Positions 15,765 through 49,598 of a stretch of 64,000 bases of DNA are shown here, piece by piece. The stretch's first letter is position 1. The number at the start of each line of letters is the position of its first letter. A program made the translations under genes and the position numbers. The DNA comes from Panorpa germanica (lineage: Eukaryota; Arthropoda; Insecta; Mecoptera; Panorpidae). The DNA lies in assembly GCA_963678705.1 (NCBI GenBank), contig OY783209.1:17360001-17424000 (forward strand), written 5' to 3'. The notes under the pieces were generated by a model, which searched no databases, was not told the origin of the DNA, and saw nothing but the letters and a program-made list of their open reading frames with translations.

Positions 15765-17237
15765 TAGCTTTTACCCCCGTCGCAAGCGACGTCTGTCTTG
15801 TGTGTATGGCTTTAGTTTCATGTCAAATTTAATTTCCATTTTAAAATTCAAATATTTAACTTGTTCTATATAAATTTTACATACAAATATAAATAATTTT
15901 CGATTCGTAAATAAGTTACCAAGGTTAGCCTATATACAAAATTTCAAGTTTTTTGCACAATTCTTACTTTCGGCAAAAACTGCCCCCGTGCCCGCAAATA
16001 AAATTTTGAAATTTTGAATTTTCTTTTATTAATAATATACATAATTATTCTAGAACCCAGAATATGAACTTTCTCCAACGTTCCCTACCGGGCCCCCGAA
16101 TTTCTTCAACCCCCCACTTTTCAATTTTTAAATTTCTAATTTTTGAGATATGCCAGCATTGAATACCTTAATACACATGCAAAATTTCAACTTTTTATCT
16201 TTTACGAATTAACAGTAATACAGCAAAAAAGGGCTCACTTTTTTTTTCCAGTTTTTCCAAAATTACGGGTTTCCAGGAAATTCAGGGAAAAATCCGGGGA
16301 CGCCAAAAGTCTTAGAATTTTTTTCTCTACGAAATAGGAAATTATTAAAAACTTCCCTGGAGCCGTTTTCGAGATGCCATACAAAATTCGAACCAAACAT
16401 ATAAAGACATAAACATATAAGAATATAAATATACAGCTGGGACATTATAATATACTTGAGTTTACCCCCGTCGCAATGCGACGTCTTTTTGGCGTGTATC
16501 ATTTGAATCCAATAAAATAATACGTAATTAAATTTCATATTTCACTGTTCTATTTTTAAATTGAAATAATAAATAAACTCGCACAAATACATTGACACAT
16601 ATAAATTGACTAAAAAATATATTTATTTTATAAAAATAAAAAAAATTTTCAATTTATGCGTTTTTTGACCAACTTTTTTTCAAAATTTGGAATTTTTTTT
16701 TTCGATTCGTAAATAACTTACCAAGGTTAGGCTATATACAAAATTTCAACTTTCTAGCACAATTTTTACTCTCGAAAAATACAGCCCCCAAATAAAATTT
16801 TGAAATTTTGAATTTTTTTTCATTAATAATATACTTAATTATTTTAGAATTCAGAATATGAACTTTCTCCAAAGTTTCCTACCGGGCCCCCGAATTTCTT
16901 TAACCCCCCCTTTTTCAATTTTTGAATTTCTAATTTTTGAGAAATATCAGCCTTAAATAGCTTAATACACATGCAAAATTTCAACTTTCTATCTTTTACG
17001 ACTTAAAAGTAATACAGCAAAAAAGGGATCACTTTTTTTCCAGTTTTTCCAAAATTACGGGTTTCCAGGAAATTCAAGGAAAAATCCAGGGACGCCAAAA
17101 GTCTTAGAATTTTTTTCTCTACGAAATAGGAAATTTTTAAAAACTTCCCTGTAGCCGTTTTCGAGATGCCATACAAAATTTGAACCAAACATATAAGAAT
17201 ATAAGAAAACAAATATACACCTGGGACATTATAATAT
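15763..17237 (-). mobile_element. Helitron-like dimer A (two tandem units)
   Basis: Unit 1 starts at 15763 with ACTAGCTTTTACCCCCGTCG; unit 2 starts at 16454 with ACTTGAGTTTACCCCCGTCG. Read on the minus strand, each unit ends with a palindromic hairpin (ACGTCGC-GCGACG type), a short G-rich spacer and then CTAG (unit 1) or the altered CTCAAG (unit 2). Bodies share long blocks: ACCAAGGTTAG, CCCTACCGGGCCCCCGAATTT, CCAAAATTACGGGTTTCCAG, GCCGTTTTCGAGATGCCATAC and a final ACATTATAATATAC. The hairpin plus CTAG followed by T suggests non-autonomous Helitrons with 3' ends to the left. No conserved protein is present; antisense frames of 60-114 codons are repeat noise. Confidence 0.65.
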
Positions 17238-18822
17238 ACTAGCTTTTACCCCCGTCGCAAGCGACGTTTGTTTTTTGTGAGTGGCTTGAATTTCAAGTCA
17301 AAATTTAATTTTTAAATTGAAATAATAAATAAACTCGTCCTATATTGATTTAACATTTAATAACAATTAATTTTTCATATAAACTGACTAAGAAAATACA
17401 TTTTTTATATCAAAATAAAAAATATTTTAAATTTATGCGATATTTGAACAACTTTTTTTCAAAATTTAAGATTTTTTTTTCGATTCGTAAATAAGTTGCC
17501 AAGGTTAGCCTATATACAAAATTTCAAATTTCTAGCACAATTTTTACTCTCGGCAAATACTGCTCCCGTGCCCCCCAATAAAATTTTAAAATTTTGAATT
17601 TTTTTTTTATTAATAATATACATAATTATTCTAGAATCCAGAAAATGAATTTTCTCCAAAGTTCCCTACCGGGCCCCCAAATTTCTTTAACCCCCCCTTT
17701 TTCAATTTTTGAATTTCTAATTTTTGATAAATGTCAGCATTGAATACCTTAATACACATGCAAAATTTCAACTTTCTATATTTTATGAATTAAAAGTAAT
17801 GCAGCAAAAAAGGGATCACTTTCTATCCAGTTTTTCCAAAATTACGGGTTTCCAGGAAATTCAGGGAAAAATCCGGGGACGCCAAAAGTCTTAGAATTTT
17901 TTTCTCTACGAAATAGGAAATTTTTAAAAACTTCACTGGAGCCGTTTTCGAGATGCCATACAAAATTCGAACCAAACATATAAACACATAAACATATAAG
18001 AATATAAATATACACTTAAGACATTATAATATACTTGAGTTTACCCCCGTCGCAATGCGACGTCTTTTTGACGTGTATCATTTGAATCCAATAAAATAAT
18101 TCGTAATTAAATTTCATATTTAACTGTTCTATTTTTAAATTGAAATAATAAATAAACTCGCGCACATATACACACATATAAATTGACTAAAAAAATATTA
18201 TTTTTTTATCAAAATAAAAAATATTTTCAATTTATGCGTTATTTAACCAACTTTTTTTCAAAATTTGAAATTTTTTTTTTCGAGTCGTAAATAAGTTACC
18301 AAGGTTAGCCTATATACAAAATTTCAACTTTCTAGCACAATTTTTACTTTCGGAAAATACTGCCCCCGTGCCCCCAAATAAAATTTTGAAATTTTGAATT
18401 TTTTTTTATTAATAATATACTTAATTATTCTACAATCCAGAATATGAACTTTCTCCAAAGTTCCCTACCGGGCCCCCGAATTTTTTCAACCCCCCTTTTT
18501 CTATTTTTGAAATTCTAATTTTTGAGAAATGTCAGCATTAAATAGCTTAATATACATGCAAAATTTCAACTTTCTATCTTTTACGTCTTGAAAGTAATAC
18601 AGCAAAAAAGGGATCACTTTTTTTCCAGTTTTTCCAAAATTACGGGTTTCCAGGAAATTCAGGCAAAAATTCGGGGACGCCAAAAGTCTTAGAATTTTTT
18701 TCTCTACGAAATAGGAAATTTTTAAAAACTTCCCTGGAGCCGTTTTCGAGATGCCATACAAAATTCGAACCAAACATATAAGAATATAAGAATATAAATA
18801 TACACCTGGGACATTATAATAT
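17238..18822 (-). mobile_element. Helitron-like dimer B (two tandem units)
   Basis: Unit 3 (17238) begins CTAGCTTTTACCC like unit 1, and unit 4 (18033) begins CTTGAGTTTACCC like unit 2. Unit 4 and unit 2 also share the following block (GTATCATTTGAATCC, CTGTTCTATTTTTAAATTG), while units 1 and 3 share a different one (GGCTT..TTTCA.GTCAAA). The array therefore repeats as a dimer, not as single units. Unit spacings are 691, 784, 795 and 790 bases. Confidence 0.7.
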
Positions 18823-21251
18823 ACTAGCGCTTCGCCCCGTCGCAAAGCGACGTGTATTTAATATTTGTGAATAAATAAATTTATTTGCTAAATTGAAAAT
18901 AATGCAAAATATTATTTTTAAGTAATTTTCGTTATAATATATCTTTTTTAAACTTTTTTTTTTTATTTTGTTATAATTCTTTCATTTACAGTAATAAAGC
19001 ACTGTATTGAACAGTCTCCAGTGCCCCCGCCCATAAGCCATGGAGCGCCTTTTTCCTTCAGCACTCTGTATCGCTTCTTTCGTGAGCATCGTCGGTCCTT
19101 AGAGTACATTCACAGCGCACCCGCCTTAGCACTATAATTAAATAATCCTTCGTTTCCTTCTCTCTGTGTAAAATTATTATTTACCCTAATAAAGCGCAGT
19201 ATTGAAAAATGTCCACTGCCCCGCCCCGTAATACTAATCATCACCTCTTGGCTCCATGCTCTGTATCGTTCTCGCACTTTCAATTGTATTCCTCTGCACC
19301 TCTGCCACAATGCGCCCACTTGCAACACCACAGCCAACCTGAGAATCATCGCACATAACGGCACTGTTCTATCGCCCCTTTTACCGCAATCATTAAACAA
19401 TCTTGCGCTTTTACCTCCTGCGTACTAATACTCTTAACAATTAGTTTTCATAATTAATACTTTACTGGCAACCTACACACTAAATTTCATCCTTAGAAGT
19501 ATATTATATTTTAATAATTATTCGATAAGATAAATGCTTGATAAAATTAATTTTCACTCATTTCAATGTAAACCTACTAATTACATCAATTCATTTATGT
19601 TTTTAAGAAAGCCTAGCGGTTCGCTCCTAATCATCTCATCTCTAGCCCTTATCCTTCCCGTTATTGTACTTTCAATTTAATCCCCTGAACCGCCGCCCAC
19701 ATTTCCAGCACCAAAGCACATATTCTACAACACGGTTATCTTCCAGAGCCATTATAATCTATCGCTACTTCTTCTAAGACCACCGTTACTTGGTGTCCTG
19801 AACCCCGGCGCCACCCTCTCCTCCAATCAGGCACTACCAATTCAATATTACAGCAATTCATTTACATAATTAAAACTGCACTGTAATCTTACGTTCTAAT
19901 TTTTGTATTTATATTTACGATATAATATTGTCCTTCCCATTAATTCCCGCTCCTGAAATAAAATTGACAAATTTTAGGCATAACAATCTATTTTGCTCAT
20001 AACAATTCTCTCTACTTTTATAACCTTTATTACTACTATCTACTTTTATAAACGATCGAAATTTAAAATTGAGCTCTTTGGCAAAGCCTTTCCCGCCCCC
20101 ACTTCCCCAATTTCACGCCGCTACTAAGGTTAAACTTATTTTTCGCAAATATGCACATGCGTAGTTTCTATTTTTTTAATTTGATATTTGGGGCTGTTAA
20201 CTATTTCCCCCCTATACCTCTCACTCCTGTTCGATTTCACAGCACAACGAACGCACCAAAAATCAATTCAATTCTACTATTGAATGTAATTTGACTATCT
20301 AACTTATAGAGAACTATTGTGCTTCTATTTAATATTCTACATGCAAAATATCATCGTTGTACCTCTATTTTGTTCTAATACTCGGTTTATCACTCCCCAC
20401 TCTAGTGTTACACTTAAGAAAAGGATTTTTTTTTTATATTTTCGTTATTAATTTGTCAATCTATATCTGCATACTAAATTTTAGCTTTGTATTTATATTT
20501 AGCATTATTACCCCCCCACATACCTGCGCTACTGAACAAGTTTCTCAAATTTTAACACAGGGATCTATTTTATTTATATCTAAGAACATATAATCTAAAC
20601 TATAGCCTTTTATTTCTATATATTTCATATTTCTGGTTTTTGGCCCACAGCGCCCGCCGCCTCTGGAAAGTTGCAGTTTTCTATAGTTTGTCTTTAACGA
20701 CACTCTATATAGAGCCCACGTTCCAAATATCAACGTTCTAGCTCTGTTGCAACATTGCCCCCAAAAAATCACGCCGCTACTGAATTAATATTTTGGTAAT
20801 CCAATTATTGGCAACATTCGCAATTAGTGTCTCAATACATGCCCTAAGTTTTATTACTACTTTTTCAATATTTCTGGCTTTTACTAACTCAACTCCCGCC
20901 GCCACTGGAAATTTGGGGCTCTTTATTTTTTTTCATTAATAACACTCTAGAGCGAGCCTACATATTAAATTTGAACGTCCTAACTCTATTCTAACATTGC
21001 CCCCGGAAATTCGCGCCGCTACTGAACTTAAATTTTAAATGTCCAACTATTGGCAAATGTGCACAATTATGATCTCAATACACATACCAAATTTCAGTTT
21101 CCTATCTTTTCTTGTTCGTCAGATATTTGCAAAAGTATTTTTTCAAATTTTCCAGTTTTTCCAGAATAATTTTTTCCAGGGAAATTCAGGGAAAAATTCA
21201 GGGACGTAGAAAGTCTTAGAAATTCGTCCTTTACATAATATCAAAATTTAA
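18823..21251 (-). mobile_element. long Helitron-like non-autonomous element, copy 1 (right end lost)
   Basis: Its left terminus is CTAGCGCTTCGCCCCGTCGCAAAGCGACG. Read on the minus strand this is a hairpin (CGTCGC-TTT-GCGACG), spacer GGGCGAAGCG and CTAG followed by T. The interior is about 2.4 kb without homology to known proteins and has internal repeats (compare 18990-19030 with 19180-19225). Its right part, around 21140-21220, matches the ends of the about 790-bp units (CCAGTTTTTCCAGAATAA, CAGGGAAAAATTCAGGGACG). It breaks off at 21251, whereas copy 2 continues to the expected end near 29645. Bases 18864-21251 recur at 27198-29585. Confidence 0.7.
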
Positions 21252-21538
21252 TTTTACTTAAATAATATTTGTTTGAACTAATATTCACTGTGCGATACAG
21301 CTTATGCCTAGTCTCAAATGGTGAGTCAGCCAATTACTATCTGCGCGATGCAGATTATACATGAACTTGAACTCTAAAAGTGGTGAGCCAATTACTAACT
21401 GCGCGATGCAGTTTATACATGAACTAATTAGATTAAGATTAACATATTACTTATATACTATTTTATTATCTCTAGAGTGCATGGTCAGCAAAGATACTGA
21501 AGAGACATTGTTAGTTTGTGTCGTATTGAATGTGTTAT

Positions 21539-21571
<33 letters not shown>
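21252..21571. repeat. spacer with a 62-bp tandem repeat and (TA)n
   Basis: Two copies of a unit containing GGTGAG..AGCCAATTACTA, CTGCGCGATGCAG and TTATACATGAACT start at 21320 and 21382. A TA tract (21544-21571) leads into the Helitron 5' end. This segment has no counterpart at the other copy of the 2388-bp repeat. Confidence 0.75.
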
Positions 21572-21574
<3 letters not shown>

Positions 21575-22355
21575 ATATATATAAAAATCAATTGCTGTTC
21601 GTTAGTCTCGCTAAAACTCAAGAACGGCTGAACGGATTTATCTTATCTTGGTCTTGAATTATTCGTGGAGGTCTCGGGAAGGTTTAAAAGGTGAGAAAAA
21701 TTCGAATAATTGCCGGGAAAATCCTCAAAACAGCATTTTTCTATTTCCCATACAAACGTTTTCTAAATAAAATGGAGAGTCAATTTGTAATTTATTACCG
21801 CTGCATAAAGTTCAAATTCGCGTGCGCGTTGGAGGACCTAATATCGCGTTCTGAAACTCAACAAAAGTGAAAGTGAATCGCGAACGCGACAAAATTGCAT
21901 AGTCTCAAAATACATAGTACATAAATAAACACAATTTTAGCTAACTTCAGTTGTTACTCTGTCCGATTATTTTTTTATTTTAGCTAACTTAAGTTGTTAC
22001 TCTGTCCGATTATTTTTTTAATAAGACTATATAGAAATCGAAAGATAAATCAATAATAATAAAGACAAATTAAATTATAAATCTTAAGTTAAATTTTGAA
22101 CGCAATCTCAATATGTATTTGACATTAGATTTGACAACCAACTGATATGTCATTCCATCCTGTCGCATTTCAGAGCACGGAAAAAATTATATTATCGTTA
22201 TATCTATCTTTGTGGCTACGTGCGCGAGAACTTTCTTTACTTTGGTGATCCTTTGTGATAGTGACATTCCAAGTAATGTGTTCTTTTTTGTGATAGTGAC
22301 ACTTTACTGCTAAATGAGCGGGAAATTTTCTCACTTTGATTAATTACAATTTACG

Positions 22356-25300
22356 ATGCCGAGGAGAAGACGACCTAACTTAGGTCGTCGTAGTCAATCA
22401 AATGTGCGAAGAGCTACCTCACGTGCTAACCGCACTGATGACCAGAGACAGACAGATCAAGAAAATAGTCGTATTGCTATGTCAGAATTGCGTTCTTTGG
22501 TGAGTAACAATGTAGGAGATAGGCTTAGAATGCAACGAGTTCGTGCACATCAAACACAACAACAGCAAGCTAGACATAATGAAATTGAGCGAATCCGCAG
22601 ACGCAGTGCTCCTGTGATTCTTGAACGAGCTGCATTCCACTATGATCCGGCAATTGATTATTGTGCCGACAAATCGGTAACAATTGGGGAAATGAAAACA
22701 ATTTGTAAAAATTGTAAGGCGTTAAAATACACTGGTGAATCTACTGGATTATGTTGTGCTGAGGGCAAAGTAAAATTGCCACAATTGGTCCCACCACCAG
22801 ATCCTTTACGCTCTTTGGTTTCTGGGATTGGAAATGATTCTAAGCACTTCTTGACCAACATTCAGAAATATAACAACTGTTTCCAGATGACATCATTCGG
22901 TGCTACACGTATTATTCAAGACAATTTCATGCCCACTTTCAAGGTATTATATAAGAATATTTTTTTATATTATTCAAGTTTGTACTAAAATATATATATC
23001 GGAAATTATTAATGGACAAATTTTTAAAAATTACAGATTCAAGGACAAATTTATCACTTACTGGGAACTCTGTTACCACTAACTGATGCAGATCATCAAT
23101 TTTTACAAATTTATTTTATGGGCAATTCAGATGCGGAAATTAATAATCGTTGTGCTCACAATCCAACAGTGAAGAGAACCATTGTCCAACAATTACAAAT
23201 ATTTCTTCATCAGAATAACAATTTAGTAAACATGTTCAAAATAGCATTGGATCGGATGCCATCTGATAGCCATAATATTATTATTCGAGCTGACAAAACA
23301 CCTGCCGGTGAACAAACAAGGAGGTTCAATTCACCTACCATTGATGAAGTGGCTGTTGTCATTGTGGGCGAAAATTTACAATCTAGAGATATTGTGCTTC
23401 ATCGTCGGAATAGTGAGTTAAAACGTGTATCTGAAACACACAGGAGTTATGATGCACTACAATATCCTTTGATCTTCTGGCAAGGGGAAGATGGATACCA
23501 TTTTAATATCAAAATGGTAAATCAAGTAACAGGTAAATGAATTGAACAAGATTAAATAATATTTTTAAATTCAATACATCTAAGTAACAATTTAAACATT
23601 TATCATTTTTGATCGCAGGTGCTGAAACCAACAAAAAAGTTAGTGCTATGAATTTCTATTCATACAGACTCATGATCCGTCAAGGTGAAGTAAATCATAT
23701 TTTAATGTGTCAACGACTTTTTCATCAGTTTGCAGTTGACATGTATGTCAAAATTGAGACTGAACGATTGACATACATCCGTTTGAACCAACGACGGCTA
23801 CGGTCAGAGGAATACATCCATCTCCGCGATGCTATAAATGCTGATGGCAATGTGAATAATGTAGGAAGAATGACAATTTTGCCAGCTACTTATATAGGAA
23901 GCCCACGTCACATGCATGAATATGCTCAGGATGCTATGTCATATGTTAGGCATTATGGCCGCCCAGATTTATTTGTTACATTCACATGTAACCCAAAATG
24001 GTCCGAAATCGAGAAGGAATTACTACATAGCCAAACACCAGTTGATAGACATGACATAACTGCCAGAGTTTTTAAACAAAAATTAAAATCTCTCATGAAT
24101 TTTTTAATAAAGCATTGTGTGTATGGCCGAGTCCGTTGTTGGATGTACTCTGTAGAATGGCAAAAGCGTGGATTGCCACATGCGCACATTTTAGTCTGGT
24201 TAGTGGACAAAATAAGGCCAGATGAGATTGATTCTATAATTTCAGCTGAAATTCCAGATGAAATAGTTGACCCAAAATTGCATGCAGTAGTAACCAAACA
24301 CATGATACATGGACCTTGCGGACATTTTAACTACAATTCACCCTGTATGGTCGACGGTAGGTGTTCCAAACGATACCCAAGACACCTGCTTGCTGAAACC
24401 ATAACGGGAAATGATGGATACCCATTGTATCGTCGGCGATCAGTTGCGGACAGTGGGCGATCGGTAGTTGTGAAGGTAAGAGGACAAAATGTTGATGTAG
24501 ACAATCGTTGGATTGTGCCATACTCGCCAATATTGTCCAAAGCTTTTGAGACTCACATCAATGTGGAATATTGTAATTCTGTGAAGTCGATAAAGTACAT
24601 ATGTAAATATGTTAATAAAGGTAGTGATATGGCTGTCTTCGGTGTAACCAATGCAAATGATGAAATATCACAGTACCAGATGGGTCGCTATGTAAGTAGC
24701 AACGAAGCTATTTGGCGTATCTTTTCATTTGCGATCCATGAAAGACACCCTACAGTAGTCCATTTGGCAGTCCATTTAGAAAATGGTCAACGAGTTTATT
24801 TTAATGAATCTAACGCGGCAGACAGGGCGGCACATCCACCGTCGACAACATTAACAAGTTTCTTCACAGTTTGTCAAACTGATGATTTTGCTCGCACTTT
24901 GCTGTATGCTGACATGCCACGCTATTACACATGGAACGCATCATCGAAATCGTTTCAGCGTCGAAAACAAGGAACACCAGTTGAAGGACATACAAATGTA
25001 TTTGCTTCAGATGCTTTGGGTCGCATCTACACAGTACATCCAAATAACGATGAATGTTATTATTTGCGGTTGTTGTTGGTGAATGTTCGTGGTCCGACAT
25101 CGTTTAAACAACTGAGAACAGTTAATGGACAGCTGTGTGCGACTTACCGTGAGGCATGTCAACTATTACATTTACTTGAGAACGATTCGCACTGGGATGA
25201 TACGCTCAAGGATTCCGTAATATCTTCGTCGCCGCATCAAATTCGTACATTGTTTGCGATTATCATATCGACATGTTTCCCCTCGAATCCAAAAGATTTG

Positions 25301-26944
25301 TGGGTTAAGTATAGAGATGACATGTCTGAGGATGTTTTGTATCGTGTGCGCCGTCAAACTTTGAATCCTACACTACAAATGACTGAAGAAATTTACAATG
25401 ACACATTGATCATGATAGAAGATATGTGTTTATTGATGGCAAATAAAGTATTGTCGTGTTTGGGAATGACAGCACCCAATCGTCATATGCACGATGCATT
25501 AAACCACGAGTTGCAAAGAGAACATCAGTACGACATTGAAGCATTGGCCGAAACAGTTCGTACAAATGTTCCACAATTAAATCAACAACAAAGAATTGCG
25601 TACGACACTTTGATAGAAGCTGTGAACAGTGGATCTGGTGGAATTTATTTCCTTGATGCTCCCGGAGGAACCGGAAAAACGTTTTTAATTTCATTGCTTT
25701 TGGCGAGGATCAGATCGCGAAATGATGTTGCTCTAGCGTTGGCTTCATCTGGAATAGCTGCAACTCTGCTCGAAGGCGGGCGAACTGCACATTCTGCCTT
25801 GAAATTACCACTAAACATGCAAATCACCGAAACACCAATTTGCAACATCGCCAAAAATAGCGCAATGGCCAAGATCCTACAGGTATGCAAATTAATTGTT
25901 TGGGATGAATGCACAATGGCCCATAAGAGGTCACTGGAGGCACTGGACAGAACGTTGAAAGATCTTCGTGACAACCAAAATATTTTCGGTGGGGCCATGA
26001 TTCTGTTGTCAGGTGATTTTCGTCAGACTCTTCCAGTTATTCCCCGATCAACTGTTGCTGATGAACTAAATGCATGCCTAAAATCATCAAATTTGTGGCA
26101 GTACGTAAAGACACTCCACTTAACAACTAACATGCGAGTATTTTTGCAACAAGATGAAACTGCTAATGTGTTTGCGAAGCAGTTGTTAGACATTGGAAAT
26201 AATAAAGTTGCAGTGGACACCTCGACCGGATTCATCACATTACCTACAGATTTCTGTCACATCACAGACTCAAAAGTGGAGCTTATTCAGCGAGTTTTCC
26301 CAGATATAGCGCAAAAGTTCAATAACCATAATTGGCTGGGTGAACGAGCAATATTAGCAGCGAAAAATAATGATGTAGAGGATCTTAATGCGACCATTCA
26401 GAATTTTCTTCCAGGACAGTTGGTTTCCTTCAAATCAGTCGACACCGTAATGAACCAGGATGACGTAATCAACTATCCCACTGAGTTTTTAAATTCACTG
26501 GAATTGCCTGGATTACCACCTCACAATTTGCAGTTAAAAGTAGGATCAGTTGTCATCATGCTGCGTAACATTAATCAACCTCGACTATGCAATGGAACAA
26601 GACTGGCTGTGAAAAGACTGATGAATAACGTCATTGAGGCGACAATCATAAAAGGAAAATACAAAGGAGAGGATGTCTTGATCCCGCGGATACCGATGAT
26701 TCCAACGGACTTACCATTCGATTTTAAACGCTTACAATTTCCAGTACGTCTGGCCTTTGCGATGACCATAAATAAATCGCAAGGACAGTCTTTAGAAGTT
26801 TGTGGAATCAACTTGGAGTTTCCCTGTTTCGCGCATGGACAATTATACGTCGCGTGTTCGCGCGTCGGAAAACCGTCTTCTTTGTTTATTTACGCACCAC
26901 AAAACAAAACAAAAAATATAGTTTATGAGAAAGCTTTAAATTAA
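22356..26944 (+). CDS. Helitron Rep-helicase transposase (three exons)
   Basis: Predicted exons are 22356-22943, 23037-23532 and 23619-26944, joined by GT-AG introns of 93 and 86 bases; both splices keep the frame and give 1469 aa. The N-terminus is Arg-rich, followed by a Cys-rich stretch (CKNCKALKYTGE..CC, about residues 117-134). The Rep nuclease shows the two-His motif GLPHAHILVW (about 547-556) and the two-Tyr motif YICKYVNKG (Tyr about 688 and 692). The Pif1-like SF1 helicase shows Walker A GGTGKT (about 1044-1049), Walker B VWDE (about 1122-1125), a GDFRQTLPV motif and INKSQGQ..YVACSR near the C-terminus. It nicks and rejoins ssDNA ends and unwinds DNA during rolling-circle transposition. 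All key motifs are intact. Confidence 0.93.
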
Positions 26945-27168
26945 TTAACAGACTGTATTTTCACAGTGTGTGTCTGTGAATATCAAATTTAAACCTTATA
27001 AATAGCCAGTATTTCAGGAAAACTCTGATTTCTAAGTAAGCAACATGATGTATCGAAAATAATAATAAAACTTCATGCTTTATTCAATAAATGCTTTTTC
27101 ATTAATAATTATTTTGTTTGTTTTAAAATCATTTTATACAAAAGATTAGGTCTTTTATTTATCGATGA

Positions 27169-27197
27169 GGCAGTACGAAGTCTGCCGGGTCAGCTAG
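27169..27197 (+). other. Helitron 3' terminal hairpin and CTAG
   Basis: The stem GGCAG/CTGCC with an 8-base loop is followed by GGGTCAG and the terminal CTAG. This is the termination signal recognised in canonical Helitrons. The same structure is at 43973-44001 in the inverted copy. Confidence 0.9.
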
Positions 27198-29645
27198 TTT
27201 GTGAATAAATAAATTTATTTGCTAAATTGAAAATAATGCAAAATATTATTTTTAAGTAATTTTCGTTATAATATATCTTTTTTAAACTTTTTTTTTTTAT
27301 TTTGTTATAATTCTTTCATTTACAGTAATAAAGCACTGTATTGACCAGTCTCCAGTGCCCCCGCCCATAAGCCATGGAGCGCCTTTTTCCTTCAGCACTC
27401 TGTATCGCTTCTTTCGTGAGCATCGTCGGTCCTTAGAGTACATTCACAGCGCACCCGCCTTAGCACTATAATTAAATAATCCTTCGTTTCCTTCTCTCTG
27501 TGTAAAATTATTATTTACCCTAATAAAGCGCAGTATTGAAAAATGTCCACTGCCCCGCCCCGTAATACTAATCATCACCTCTTGGCTCCATGCTCTGTAT
27601 CGTTCTCGCACTTTCAATTGTATTCCTCTGCACCTCTGCCACAATGCGCCCACTTGCAACACCACAGCCAACCTGAGAATCATCGCACATAACGGCACTG
27701 TTCTATCGCCCCTTTTACCGCAATCATTAAACAATCTTGCGCTTTTACCTCCTGCGTACTAATACTCTTAACAATTAGTTTTCATAATTAATACTTTACT
27801 GGCAACCTACACACTAAATTTCATCCTTAGAAGTATATTATATTTTAATAATTATTCGATAAGATAAATGCTTGATAAAATTAATTTTCACTCATTTCAA
27901 TGTAAACCTACTAATTACATCAATTCATTTATGTTTTTAAGAAAGTCTAGCGGTTCGCTCCTAATCATCTCATCTCTAGCCCTTATCCTTCCCGTTATTG
28001 TACTTTCAATTTAATCCCCTGAACCGCCGCCCACATTTCCAGCACCAAAGCACATATTCTACAACACGGTTATCTTCCAGAGCCATTATAATCTATCGCT
28101 ACTTCTTCTAAGACCACCGTTACTTGGTGTCCTGAACCCCGGCGCCACCCTCTCCTCCAATCAGGCACTACCAATTCAATATTACAGCAATTCATTTACA
28201 TAATTAAAACTGCACTGTAATCTTACGTTCTAATTTTTGTATTTATATTTACGATATAATATTGTCCTTCCCATTAATTCCCGCTCCTGAAATAAAATTG
28301 ACAAATTTTAGGCATAACAATCTATTTTGCTCATAACAATTCTCTCTACTTTTATAACCTTTATTACTACTATCTACTTTTATAAACGATCGAAATTTAA
28401 AATTGAGCTCTTTGGCAAAGCCTTTCCCGCCCCCACTTCCCCAATTTCACGCCGCTACTAAGGTTAAACTTATTTTTCGCAAATATGCACATGCGTAGTT
28501 TCTATTTTTTTAATTTGATATTTGGGGCTGTTAACTATTTCCCCCCTATACCTCTCACTCCTGTTCGATTTCACAGCACAACGAACGCACCAAAAATCAA
28601 TTCAATTCTACTATTGAATGTAATTTGACTATCTAACTTATAGAGAACTATTGTGCTTCTATTTAATATTCTACATGCAAAATATCATCGTTGTACCTCT
28701 ATTTTGTTCTAATACTCGGTTTATCACTCCCCACTCTAGTGTTACACTTAAGAAAAGGATTTTTTTTTTATATTTTCGTTATTAATTTGTCAATCTATAT
28801 CTGCATACTAAATTTTAGCTTTGTATTTATATTTAGCATTATTACCCCCCCACATACCTGCGCTACTGAACAAGTTTCTCAAATTTTAACACAGGGATCT
28901 ATTTTATTTATATCTAAGAACATATAATCTAAACTATAGCCTTTTATTTCTATATATTTCATATTTCTGGTTTTTGGCCCACAGCGCCCGCCGCCTCTGG
29001 AAAGTTGCAGTTTTCTATAGTTTGTCTTTAACGACACTCTATATAGAGCCCACGTTCCAAATATCAACGTTCTAGCTCTGTTGCAACATTGCCCCCAAAA
29101 AATCACGCCGCTACTGAATTAATATTTTGGTAATCCAATTATTGGCAACATTCGCAATTAGTGTCTCAATACATGCCCTAAGTTTTATTACTACTTTTTC
29201 AATATTTCTGGCTTTTACTAACTCAACTCCCGCCGCCACTGGAAATTTGGGGCTCTTTATTTTTTTTCATTAATAACACTCTAGAGCGAGCCTACATATT
29301 AAATTTGAACGTCCTAACTCTATTCTAACATTGCCCCCGGAAATTCGCGCCGCTACTGAACTTAAATTTTAAATGTCCAACTATTGGCAAATGTGCACAA
29401 TTATGATCTCAATACACATACCAAATTTCAGTTTCCTATCTTTTCTTGTTCGTCAGATATTTGCAAAAGTATTTTTTCAAATTTTCCAGTTTTTCCAGAA
29501 TAATTTTTTCCAGGGAAATTCAGGGAAAAATTCAGGGACGTAGAAAGTCTTAGAAATTCGTCCTTTACATAATATCAAAATTTAAAAAACTTTGTAGGCG
29601 CCGTTTAGAAGATACCATACAGATTTTGTTACCGGAAATATATAT
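27198..29645 (-). mobile_element. long Helitron-like element, copy 2 (left end lost)
   Basis: It begins exactly at the base after the Helitron CTAG and matches 18864-21251 over 2388 bases with the same length. Two substitutions were noticed by eye (19011/27345 and 19612/27946). Unlike copy 1 it continues past 29585 through TTTGTAGGCGCCGTTTAGAAG and ATACCATAC, the normal end of the family, up to a TA-rich tract. No protein is encoded; the 96-codon frame at 27734-27444 is identical to 19400-19110 only because the DNA is duplicated. Confidence 0.85.
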
Positions 29646-29721
29646 ATATATATAAATATCTATGAGTTCTTATGAGTTTTCCATGTTAAATTGGAACATT
29701 ACGAACATTATAATAGTAAGA

Positions 29722-43972: not shown

Positions 43973-46900
43973 CTAGCTGACCCGGCAGACTTCGTACTGC
44001 CTCATCGATAAATAAAAGACCTAATCTTTTGTATAAAATGATTTTAAAACAAACAAAATAATTATTAATGAAAAAGCATTTATTGAATAAAGCATGAAGT
44101 TTTATTATTATTTTCGATACATCATGTTGCTTACTTAGAAATCAGAGTTTTCCTGAAATACTGGCTATTTATAAGGTTTAAATTTGATATTCACAGACAC
44201 ACACTGTGAAAATACAGTCTGTTAATTAATTTAAAGCTTTCTCATAAACTATATTTTTTGTTTTGTTTTGTGGTGCGTAAATAAACAAAGAAGACGGTTT
44301 TCCGACGCGCGAACACGCGACGTATAATTGTCCATGCGCGAAACAGGGAAACTCCAAGTTGATTCCACAAACTTCTAAAGACTGTCCTTGCGATTTATTT
44401 ATGGTCATCGCAAAGGCCAGACGTACTGGAAATTGTAAGCGTTTAAAATCGAATGGTAAGTCCGTTGGAATCATCGGTATCCGCGGGATCAAGACATCCT
44501 CTCCTTTGTATTTTCCTTTTATGATTGTCGCCTCAATGACGTTATTCATCAGTCTTTTCACAGCCAGTCTTGTTCCATTGCATAGTCGAGGTTGATTAAT
44601 GTTACGCAGCATGATGACAACTGATCCTACTTTTAACTGCAAATTGTGAGGTGGTAATCCAGGCAATTCCAGTGAATTTAAAAACTCAGTGGGATAGTTG
44701 ATTACGTCATCCTGGTTCATTACGGTGTCGACTGATTTGAAGGAAACCAACTGTCCTGGAAGAAAATTCTGAATGGTCGCATTAAGATCCTCTACATCAT
44801 TATTTTTCGCTGCTAATATTGCTCGTTCACCCAGCCAATTATGGTTATTGAACTTTTGCGCTATATCTGGGAAAACTCGCTGAATAAGCTCCACTTTTGA
44901 GTCTGTGATGTGACAGAAATCTGTAGGTAATGTGATGAATCCGGTCGAGGTGTCCACTGCAACTTTATTATTTCCAATGTCTAACAACTGCTTCGCAAAC
45001 ACATTAGCAGTTTCATCTTGTTGCAAAAATACTCGCATGTTAGTTGTTAAGTGGAGTGTCTTTACGTACTGCCACAAATTTGATGATTTTAGGCATGCAT
45101 TTAGTTCATCAGCAACAGTTGATCGGGGAATAACTGGAAGAGTCTGACGAAAATCACCTGACAACAGAATCATGGCCCCACCGAAAATATTTTGGTTGTC
45201 ACGAAGATCTTTCAACGTTCTGTCCAGTGCCTCCAGTGACCTCTTATGGGCCATTGTGCATTCATCCCAAACAATTAATTTGCATACCTGTAGGATCTTG
45301 GCCATTGCGCTATTTTTGGCGATGTTGCAAATTGGTGTTTCGGTGATTTGCATGTTTAGTGGTAATTTCAAGGCAGAATGTGCAGTTCGCCCGCCTTCGA
45401 GCAGAGTTGCAGCTATTCCAGATGAAGCCAACGCTAGAGCAACATCATTTCGCGATCTGATCCTCGCCAAAAGCAATGAAATTAAAAACGTTTTTCCGGT
45501 TCCTCCGGGAGCATCAAGGAAATAAATTCCACCAGATCCACTGTTCACAGCTTCTATCAAAGTGTCGTACGCAATTCTTTGTTGTTGATTTAATTGTGGA
45601 ACATTTGTACGAACTGTTTCGGCCAATGCTTCAATGTCGTACTGATGTTCTCTTTGCAACTCGTGGTTTAATGCATCGTGCATATGACGATTGGGTGCTG
45701 TCATTCCCAAACACGACAATACTTTATTTGCCATCAATAAACACATATCTTCTATCATGATCAATGTGTCATTGTAAATTTCTTCAGTCATTTGTAGTGT
45801 AGGATTCAAAGTTTGACGGCGCACACGATACAAAACATCCTCAGACATGTCATCTCTATACTTAACCCACAAATCTTTTGGATTCGAGGGGAAACATGTC
45901 GATATGATAATCGCAAACAATGTACGAATTTGATGCGGCGACGAAGATATTACGGAATCCTTGAGCGTATCATCCCAGTGCGAATCGTTCTCAAGTAAAT
46001 GTAATAGTTGACATGCCTCACGGTAAGTCGCACACAGCTGTCCATTAACTGTTCTCAGTTGTTTAAACGATGTCGGACCACGAACATTCACCAACAACAA
46101 CCGCAAATAATAACATTCATCGTTATTTGGATGTACTGTGTAGATGCGACCCAAAGCATCTGAAGCAAATACATTTGTATGTCCTTCAACTGGTGTTCCT
46201 TGTTTTCGACGCTGAAACGATTTCGATGATGCGTTCCATGTGTAATAGCGTGGCATGTCAGCATACAGCAAAGTGCGAGCAAAATCATCAGTTTGACAAA
46301 CTGTGAAGAAACTTGTTAATGTTGTCGACGGTGGATGTGCCGCCCTGTCTGCCGCGTTAGATTCATTAAAATAAACTCGTTGACCATTTTCTAAATGGAC
46401 TGCCAAATGGACTACTGTAGGGTGTCTTTCATGGATCGCAAATGAAAAGATACGCCAAATAGCTTCGTTGCTACTTACATAGCGACCCATCTGGTACTGT
46501 GATATTTCATCATTTGCATTGGTTACACCGAAGACAGCCATATCACTACCTTTATTAACATATTTACATATGTACTTTATCGACTTCACAGAATTACAAT
46601 ATTCCACATTGATGTGAGTCTCAAAAGCTTTGGACAATATTGGCGAGTATGGCACAATCCAACGATTGTCTACATCAACATTTTGTCCTCTTACCTTCAC
46701 AACTACCGATCGCCCACTGTCCGCAACTGATCGCCGACGATACAATGGGTATCCATCATTTCCCGTTATGGTTTCAGCAAGCAGGTGTCTTGGGTATCGT
46801 TTGGAACACCTACCGTCGACCATACAGGGTGAATTGTAGTTAAAATGTCCGCAAGGTCCATGTATCATGTGTTTGGTTACTACTGCATGCAATTTTGGGT

Positions 46901-49598
46901 CAACTATTTCATCTGGAATTTCAGCTGAAATTATAGAATCAATCTCATCTGGCCTTATTTTGTCCACTAACCAGACTAAAATGTGCGCATGTGGCAATCC
47001 ACGCTTTTGCCATTCTACAGAGTACATCCAACAACGGACTCGGCCATACACACAATGCTTTATTAAAAAATTCATGAGAGATTTTAATTTTTGTTTAAAA
47101 ACTCTGGCAGTTATGTCATGTCTATCAACTGGTGTTTGGCTATGTAGTAATTCCTTCTCGATTTCGGACCATTTTGGGTTACATGTGAATGTAACAAATA
47201 AATCTGGGCGGCCATAATGCCTAACATATGACATAGCATCCTGAGCATATTCATGCATGTGACGTGGGCTTCCTATATAAGTAGCTGGCAAAATTGTCAT
47301 TCTTCCTACATTATTCACATTGCCATCAGCATTTATAGCATCGCGGAGATGGATGTATTCCTCTGACCGTAGCCGTCGTTGGTTCAAACGGATGTATGTC
47401 AATCGTTCAGTCTCAATTTTGACATACATGTCAACTGCAAACTGATGAAAAAGTCGTTGACACATTAAAATATGATTTACTTCACCTTGACGGATCATGA
47501 GTCTGTATGAATAGAAATTCATAGCACTAACTTTTTTGTTGGTTTCAGCACCTGCGATCAAAAATGATAAATGTTTAAATTGTTACTTAGATGTATTGAA
47601 TTTAAAAATATTATTTAATCTTGTTCAATTCATTTACCTGTTACTTGATTTACCATTTTGATATTAAAATGGTATCCATCTTCCCCTTGCCAGAAGATCA
47701 AAGGATATTGTAGTGCATCATAACTCCTGTGTGTTTCAGATACACGTTTTAACTCACTATTCCGACGATGAAGCACAATATCTCTAGATTGTAAATTTTC
47801 GCCCACAATGACAACAGCCACTTCATCAATGGTAGGTGAATTGAACCTCCTTGTTTGTTCACCGGCAGGTGTTTTGTCAGCTCGAATAATAATATTATGG
47901 CTATCAGATGGCATCCGATCCAATGCTATTTTGAACATGTTTACTAAATTGTTATTCTGATGAAGAAATATTTGTAATTGTTGGACAATGGTTCTCTTCA
48001 CTGTTGGATTGTGAGCACAACGATTATTAATTTCCGCATCTGAATTGCCCATAAAATAAATTTGTAAAAATTGATGATCTGCATCAGTTAGTGGTAACAG
48101 AGTTCCCAGTAAGTGATAAATTTGTCCTTGAATCTGTAATTTTTAAAAATTTGTCCATTAATAATTTCCGATATATATATTTTAGTACAAACTTGAATAA
48201 TATAAAAAAATATTCTTATATAATACCTTGAAAGTGGGCATGAAATTGTCTTGAATAATATGTGTAGCACCGAATGATGTCATCTGGAAACAGTTGTTAT
48301 ATTTCTGAATGTTGGTCAAGAAGTGCTTAGAATCATTTCCAATCCCAGAAACCAAAGAGCGTAAAGGATCTGGTGGTGGGACCAATTGTGGCAATTTTAC
48401 TTTGCCCTCAGCACAACATAATCCAGTAGATTCACCAGTGTATTTTAACGCCTTACAATTTTTACAAATTGTTTTCATTTCCCCAATTGTTACCGATTTG
48501 TCGGCACAATAATCAATTGCCGGATCATAGTGGAATGCAGCTCGTTCAAGAATCACAGGAGCACTGCGTCTGCGGATTCGCTCAATTTCATTATGTCTAG
48601 CTTGCTGTTGTTGTGTTTGATGTGCACGAACTCGTTGCATTCTAAGCCTATCTCCTACATTGTCACTCACCAAAGAACGCAATTCTGACATAGCAATACG
48701 ACTATTTTCTTGATCTGTCTGTCTCTGGTCATCAGTGCGGTTAGCACGTGAGGTAGCTCTTCGCACATTTGATTGACTACGACGACCTAAGTTAGGTCGT
48801 CTTCTCCTCGGCATCGTAAATTGTAATTAATCAAAGTGAGAAAATTTCCCGCTCATTTAGCAGTAAAGTGTCACTATCACAAAAAAGAACACATTACTTG
48901 GAATGTCACTATCACAAAGGATCACCAAAGTAAAGAAAGTTCTCGCGCACGTAGCCACAAAGATAGATATAACGATAATATAATTTTTTCCGTGCTCTGA
49001 AATGCGACAGGATGGAATGACATATCAGTTGGTTGTCAAATCTAATGTCAAATACATATTGAGATTGCGTTCAAAATTTAACTTAAGATTTATAATTTAA
49101 TTTGTCTTTATTATTATTGATTTATCTTTCGATTTCTATATAGTCTTATTAAAAAAATAATCGGACAGAGTAACAACTTAAGTTAGCTAAAATAAAAAAA
49201 TAATCGGACAGAGTAACAACTGAAGTTAGCTAAAATTGTGTTTATTTATGTACTATGTATTTTGAGACTATGCAATTTTGTCGCGTTCGCGATTCACTTT
49301 CACTTTTGTTGAGTTTCAGAACGCGATATTAGGTCCTCCAACGCGCACGCGAATTTGAACTTTATGCAGCGGTAATAAATTACAAATTGACTCTCCATTT
49401 TATTTAGAAAACGTTTGTATGGGAAATAGAAAAATGCTGTTTTGAGGATTTTCCCGGCAATTATTCGAATTTTTCTCACCTTTTAAACCTTCCCGAGACC
49501 TCCACGAATAATTCAAGACCAAGATAAGATAAATCCGTTCAGCCGTTCTTGAGTTTTAGCGAGACTAACGAACAGCAATTGATTTTTATATATATAGA
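43973..49598 (-). mobile_element. autonomous Helitron, copy 2 (inverted)
   Basis: The same 5626-bp element as 21572-27197 on the opposite strand: 5' TC at 49598, 3' CTAG at 43973, inserted between A and T in TA-rich DNA. The terminal hairpin lies at 43984-44001. Only isolated base differences from copy 1 were seen, including two that change residues 51 (Asn to Asp) and 185 (Arg to His) in the first exon. Its 5' end faces the troponin C promoter. Confidence 0.95.
44226..48814 (-). CDS. Helitron Rep-helicase transposase (three exons), copy 2
   Basis: Exons are 48814-48227, 48133-47638 and 47551-44226, with the same GT-AG introns as copy 1. The third-exon protein (Rep nuclease plus Pif1-like helicase) is identical to copy 1 over its whole length, so all catalytic motifs are intact: HAH, the two-Tyr motif, GGTGKT, WDE and the C-terminal helicase motifs. 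Two residues differ in exon 1. Antisense frames of 60-117 codons in this interval are shadows. Identity of two 1469-aa frames argues for very recent amplification. Confidence 0.93.

What the first reader, a model, noticed from the sequence alone, without database searches (positions are those of the whole stretch)
18864..29585. 2388-bp direct duplication whose second copy begins exactly at the Helitron 3' terminus
18864-21251 and 27198-29585 have equal length with only two differences noticed. Copy 2 starts at the base immediately after CTAG; in copy 1 the same base follows an A (A|T), a legal Helitron target. Copy 1 keeps the left end of the parent element and copy 2 keeps its right end, so 320 bp plus a Helitron lie inside one parent element flanked by a huge duplication. 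Simple insertion does not predict this; replication slippage, template switching or one-ended Helitron integration could.
Basis: partly seen in the sequence, partly recalled or inferred. Interest (0 to 1): 0.85.

Follow-up and report, generated by a model that had tools for sequence, protein, structure and literature searches.

The report
Helitron bridging two sites 370-kb apart
A jumping gene (a Helitron) sits here with its two intact ends attached to DNA from two places about 370,000 bases apart on the same chromosome, flanked by a 2.4-kb duplicate of its landing site; the junctions suggest an insertion that went wrong and was finished by DNA copying that switched templates.

Summary
18864-21251 and 27198-29585 are 2388-bp direct repeats with 2 differences. 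The parent is a 2564-bp non-autonomous Helitron on the minus strand; 26 of 26 other copies fetched run uninterrupted through both breakpoints. The repeats share 4 substitutions absent from those 26, so one was copied from the other.

The 320-bp spacer matches, 320 of 320, one other place among the 40 candidates scored: C6:17748105-17748424, 367 kb downstream, same orientation, an LTR-like end plus (TA)n, with no Helitron there. The repeat/spacer joint has 5-bp microhomology (0.9% of random joins). Both Helitron ends are exact: A|TC in 20 of 20 copies (window's included), CTAG|T in 20 of 20 others. Five of five other insertions with a clear empty site are simple.

Best reading: a Helitron insertion completed by microhomology template switching, giving a 2.4-kb target duplication and carrying 320 bp of donor 5' flank. 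Main rival: recombination between two ordinary insertions, then a large deletion. One case; no reads.

The parts
18824..18863 (-). Left part of the parent, a non-autonomous Helitron in reverse orientation: its 3' terminus (hairpin-like stretch + CTAG on the minus strand) up to the insertion point
   Evidence: 26 of 26 other copies match from CTAG inward, and 13 of 26 matches stop within 3 bp outside it; outside sequence differs in L003 and L004, is alike in L007; coordinates
18864..21251 (.). Target segment D, copy 1 (2388 bp), still attached to the parent's 3' end (uninterrupted A|T site at 18863|18864)
21247..21251 (.). 5-bp microhomology TTTAA shared by the end of copy 1 and the spacer source
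21252..21571 (+). Spacer X: 320 bp identical to C6:17748105-17748424 (LTR-like end plus (TA)n), 366,853 bp beyond copy 1, same orientation
21572..27197 (+). Helitron H, 5626 bp, 5' TC to 3' CTAG, both termini intact
23609..26944 (+). RepHel-type reading frame, 1111 aa (Helitron_like_N, PIF1)
27198..29585 (.). Target segment D, copy 2 (2388 bp), attached to Helitron H's 3' end (CTAG|T)
29586..29721 (-). Right part of the parent: its 5' end (TC on the minus strand)
   Evidence: 23 of 26 other copies reach the same end, 3 (L003, L005, L069) diverge before it; coordinates
43973..49598 (-). Second copy of Helitron H (2 differences in 5626 bp), different flanks

Best explanation
An insertion of Helitron H into a non-autonomous Helitron was completed by replicative repair with template switching. 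Inferred course: H lay at the (TA)n of the X locus, 367 kb away on the same chromosome. Its 3' end (CTAG) was joined to the T at an A|T site of the parent, while its 5' end stayed attached to the donor flank. The free 3'-OH at the other side of the target nick was extended over 2388 nt of the target, then switched, or was joined by end joining, at TTTAA to the donor flank 320 bp upstream of H. The product is L-D-X-H-D-R: a 2388-bp target duplication plus co-mobilised 5' flank. Shown: the sequence origins, the junctions, exact H termini, microhomology and shared private substitutions. Inferred: that H was at X, the order of steps, and that it was one event.
For: Both H termini are exactly those of ordinary copies (A|TC 20 of 20 fetched, of which one is this copy; CTAG|T 20 of 20 others). 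X has one identical source among 40 scored candidates, next best 97%. The X/H joint is A|TC in (TA)n, and several other 5' flanks are also TA runs, so such a target is usual. 5-bp microhomology, 0.9% of random joins. D copies share 4 substitutions not seen in 26 other copies and have one private change each. Short tracts (2388 and 320 bp) fit one local event. The source is in cis: a random source within +/-370 kb has P = 0.0016 (post hoc). H copies cluster here: 6 of 40 listed 3' ends, the two in the window included, lie in 16.78-17.85 Mb of C6, 0.09 expected (interval chosen after the fact).
Against: No H at X in this assembly, so the donor insertion must be on another haplotype or lost. One case only: five of five other insertions with a clear empty site are simple. 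A 5-bp match in AT-rich DNA is modest evidence. In the (TA)n run the X/H joint could also be a second template switch. The cis order and orientation are explained at least as well by ectopic recombination. No reads were available.
Confidence: 0.45

Rival explanations
1. Two ordinary Helitron insertions, one at X and one in the parent, on different chromosomes of a pair, recombined by unequal crossing over within H. That gives L-D...X-H-D-R...X, a 369.6-kb tandem duplication with H at the junction. A later 366.9-kb deletion with TTTAA microhomology removed nearly all of the first copy.
For: Predicts the cis position, same orientation, order (D before X), and the two uninterrupted sites that remain in the assembly. 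H copies are near identical and clustered here. Every step is an ordinary one.
Against: Needs four events, and a deletion that by chance leaves only 2708 of 369,561 bp (about 5e-5 for random breakpoints; selection for restored dosage would raise this). The D copies would come from two homologues yet differ at only 2 sites; the species' diversity is unknown, so this is weak.
Confidence: 0.27
2. A plain H insertion in the parent was later damaged at its 5' junction and repaired by template switching: from the empty homologue (L-D) to X by TTTAA, then from the (TA)n of X back to the 5' end of H. H was never at X.
For: Needs no donor H at X, which agrees with the empty X locus. The (TA)n of X offers short homology to the ATA that would stand before H's TC in the parent.
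Against: The switch had to land on the terminal TC although a longer TA run lies 2 nt inside H (TCTATATATATA), so loss of TC would be expected. Two switches needed.
Confidence: 0.15
3. Assembly error: haplotypes or repeat copies joined wrongly.
For: Near-identical repeats longer than 2 kb; no read data could be examined; two differences between copies would also fit two haplotypes.
Against: False joins do not predict a spacer from a locus 367 kb away with 5-bp microhomology together with an exact Helitron 3' end at a legal A|T site. No N in the window.
Confidence: 0.08

Closest known systems
Helitron rolling-circle transposons (Helraiser, PMC4778049, passages read)
   Same: RepHel protein, 5' TC and 3' CTAG ends; insertion at AT without target duplication is stated in PMC10095026 (passage)
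   Different: Here a 2388-bp target duplication and 320 bp of upstream flank accompany the element; the Helraiser passages describe capture of downstream (3') flank by read-through
FoSTeST and gap-filling models for Pack-TIRs (PMC8277862, passages read)
   Same: Transposition-coupled template switching, microhomology at breakpoints, bias to sources in cis; the authors add that template switching is commonly observed in Helitron-mediated duplication, citing a 2007 review that I did not see
   Different: Worked out for TIR transposons with filler inside the transposon; here the copied DNA lies between an intact element and a duplicate of its target
Imperfect maize Helitron circles (PMC10095026, passages read)
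   Same: Microhomology at Helitron joints; one circle holds 32 bp next to the intact left end, so upstream flank with a Helitron intermediate is not without precedent
   Different: Somatic circles with truncated right ends, not a genomic insertion with a target duplication
FoSTeS/MMBIR (MMBIR recalled; FoSTeS named in PMC8277862)
   Same: Templated copy from a distant locus, 5-bp microhomology
   Different: One joint is an exact transposon 3' end at a legal target, which template switching alone does not predict

Membership tests
Helitron (element H) | RepHel protein | tested here: met
   Helitron_like_N 9.4e-59, PIF1 1.5e-64; HUH catalytic residues not examined; frames upstream of the 1111-aa one are separate ORFs in both window copies
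Helitron (element H) | 5' TC and 3' CTRR termini | tested here: met
   20 of 20 fetched 5' ends TC after A, this copy included; 20 of 20 other 3' ends CTAG before T
Helitron (element H) | The family inserts at A|T without target duplication | tested here: met
   Five of five other copies with a clear empty site (L041, L042, L045; L032, L034); five more plus the second window copy could not be judged, one of them (L043) with only 67-69% counterparts
Simple Helitron insertion (this locus) | Flanks contiguous at one target, no duplication | tested here: not met
   5' flank from the X locus, 3' flank from the parent, 2388-bp duplication
Non-autonomous Helitron (parent) | TC and CTAG termini, no transposase | tested here: met
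   CTAG at 18824 in 26 of 26 other copies; TC end at 29721 in 23 of 26; coordinates; no ORF of 100 aa or more inside D
Helitron 3' transduction (read-through) | Downstream donor flank carried with the element | tested here: not met
   The foreign flank is upstream of H; the 3' end is exact
FoSTeS/MMBIR-type template switching | Distant templated segment with microhomology at the joint | tested here: met
   X from C6:17748105-17748424, TTTAA
One-ended transposition | One end exact, the other variable | tested here: inconclusive
   Both element termini are intact, but they stand on DNA of two loci

The most novel reading that the evidence does not exclude
Helitrons can integrate 3' end first while the 5' end stays on the donor, and the intermediate is resolved by template switching. 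This would yield kilobase-scale target duplications and 5'-flank transduction, a route of Helitron-driven sequence shuffling opposite in polarity to 3' read-through.
Probability: 0.38. Interest if true: 0.65.

Novelty: new variant of a known kind. Interest (0 to 1): 0.45.

Why it matters
If one-ended, the locus is a natural trapped intermediate of Helitron integration and bears on which end is joined to the target first, which to my knowledge (recalled) rests on models. It would also show a way for Helitrons to move upstream DNA and create kilobase direct repeats. If it arose by ectopic recombination instead, it shows young Helitron copies driving large rearrangements.

Tried and rejected
Replication slippage: rejected, because the spacer matches a locus 367 kb away. 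Two independent parent copies side by side: rejected, because the D copies share 4 substitutions absent from 26 others. LTR pair: rejected, because D is an inner part of a Helitron. Spacer as part of H: rejected, because H begins at TC in 20 of 20 copies. X beside another Helitron copy: none listed; two identical X places, the window's and the source, among 40 scored of 560 candidates. The source's right flank is itself a repeat with one identical place, the source (40 scored of 313). Comparing each 3' flank with 1.5 kb of upstream sequence in 11 copies gave matches in 2 of 11, the lines shown being TA runs; it would miss longer duplications. Literature: searches (two returned nothing; two listed 12 of 35 and 25 of 31) listed no title on a kilobase target duplication with a Helitron; I saw listings and the passages named, in an open-access library.

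Full report
Observation. The two 2388-bp segments differ at 2 positions. Other copies of the segment are common: 36 full-length matches including these two, a lower bound, since 40 of 2870 candidates were scored. I fetched 26 of the 34 others; 26 of 26 are contiguous from CTAG at the parent's left end through D to the first 60 bp of its right side. The parent ends in CTAG at 18824 and in TC (minus strand) at 29721 and is 2564 bp long without the 8334-bp insert. The right end is shared by 23 of the 26; L003, L005 and L069 diverge before it. It is a non-autonomous Helitron lying in reverse.

The two copies are one lineage. They share 4 substitutions (D positions 296, 645, 1072, 1190) seen in 0 of the 26 others (one has a gap at 296), and each has one private change (148 in copy 1, 749 in copy 2). 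That is about 4e-4 substitutions per site per copy, interval 0.5e-4 to 15e-4.

The spacer. Its 320 bases match C6:17748105-17748424 without a difference; the next best place has 97% (40 of 560 candidates scored). The identity extends 5 bases to the left, into the end of copy 1 (TTTAA), and then stops. Random joins between the parent and the source locus give 5 bp or more in 0.9% of cases. I read the source as the end of an LTR: a second copy of it, 95% alike in the same direction, lies about 6.9 kb upstream, and the stretch next to it looks like a primer-binding site (recalled, not tested). After it come (TA)n, poly-T and another repeat. No Helitron is there in this assembly. The source lies 366,853 bp beyond copy 1 in the same orientation.

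The Helitron. H is 5626 bp with a RepHel-type frame; the window's second copy differs at 2 positions. Its 5' end is A|TC in 20 of 20 fetched copies, this copy and the second window copy included, and its 3' end CTAG|T in 20 of 20 others (two of these, L080 and L081, have the same flank). So the window copy has both termini intact, the 5' end in the (TA)n belonging to the X locus and the 3' end at an A|T site of the parent.

Control. I joined the flanks of 10 other copies and of the second window copy (11 in all). L041, L042 and L045 have an uninterrupted counterpart over 210 bp among the sequences held (91%, 96%, 98%); L041 is inside another D-family element. Three more were sought genome-wide: L032 (up to 96%) and L034 (up to 95%) have clear counterparts, L043 only at 67-69%, which I do not count. 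L033, L038, L040 and the second window copy could not be judged because of TA runs; L046's only spanning match was to itself and it was not sought genome-wide. So 5 of 11 could be resolved and 5 of 5 are simple; this one is not.

Mechanism. Any account must yield L-D-X-H-D-R with a microhomology joint D/X and two exact Helitron joints. I favour a single event in which H's 3' end was joined to the target and the other side was completed by copying 2388 bp of target and switching to the donor flank. The short tracts favour one event. The chief rival, unequal crossing over between two plain insertions and then a 366.9-kb deletion, explains the cis order and orientation at least as well, but needs a deletion that leaves 0.7% of the duplication. 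Clustering of H on C6 (11 of 40 listed 3' ends, about 2 expected; 6 of 40 in 1.07 Mb, both window copies included) makes a nearby donor unsurprising under either. The list holds 40 scored of 78 candidates, all at 100%, and the interval was chosen after the fact, so the figure is rough.

Known systems. Helraiser work describes circles and 3' transduction by read-through (PMC4778049, passages). Transposition coupled with template switching is described for TIR elements, and the same paper says that template switching is commonly observed in Helitron-mediated duplication, citing a review I did not see (PMC8277862, passages). Maize circular intermediates with microhomology at imperfect joints, one with 32 bp next to the left end, are in PMC10095026 (passages). 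So the ingredients are known; the combination at one locus, an intact Helitron with a kilobase target duplication and 5' flank from a traceable source, I did not find in the listings, from a partial library.

Noticed in passing
window 15897-18863: Tandem array of roughly 795-bp units (81-96% alike) immediately left of the parent; the units carry a Helitron-like hairpin stretch, and some of them the CTAG as well
   Followed up: partly
G000 C5:17206829-17218070 (L031, L033, L076): Two H copies head to tail, separated by a 13-nt TA run after CTAG
   Followed up: partly
G000 C7:9856570 and C7:9876390 (L058, L057): Two D copies with 0 differences, 19.8 kb apart in the same orientation, perhaps a recent segmental duplication
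   Followed up: no
G000 C6:16.78-17.85 Mb: Six of 40 listed H 3' ends fall in about 1 Mb, as if the family jumps locally
   Followed up: partly
window 43973-49598: Second, nearly identical Helitron H in opposite orientation 17 kb from the first; together they form a long inverted repeat
   Followed up: partly
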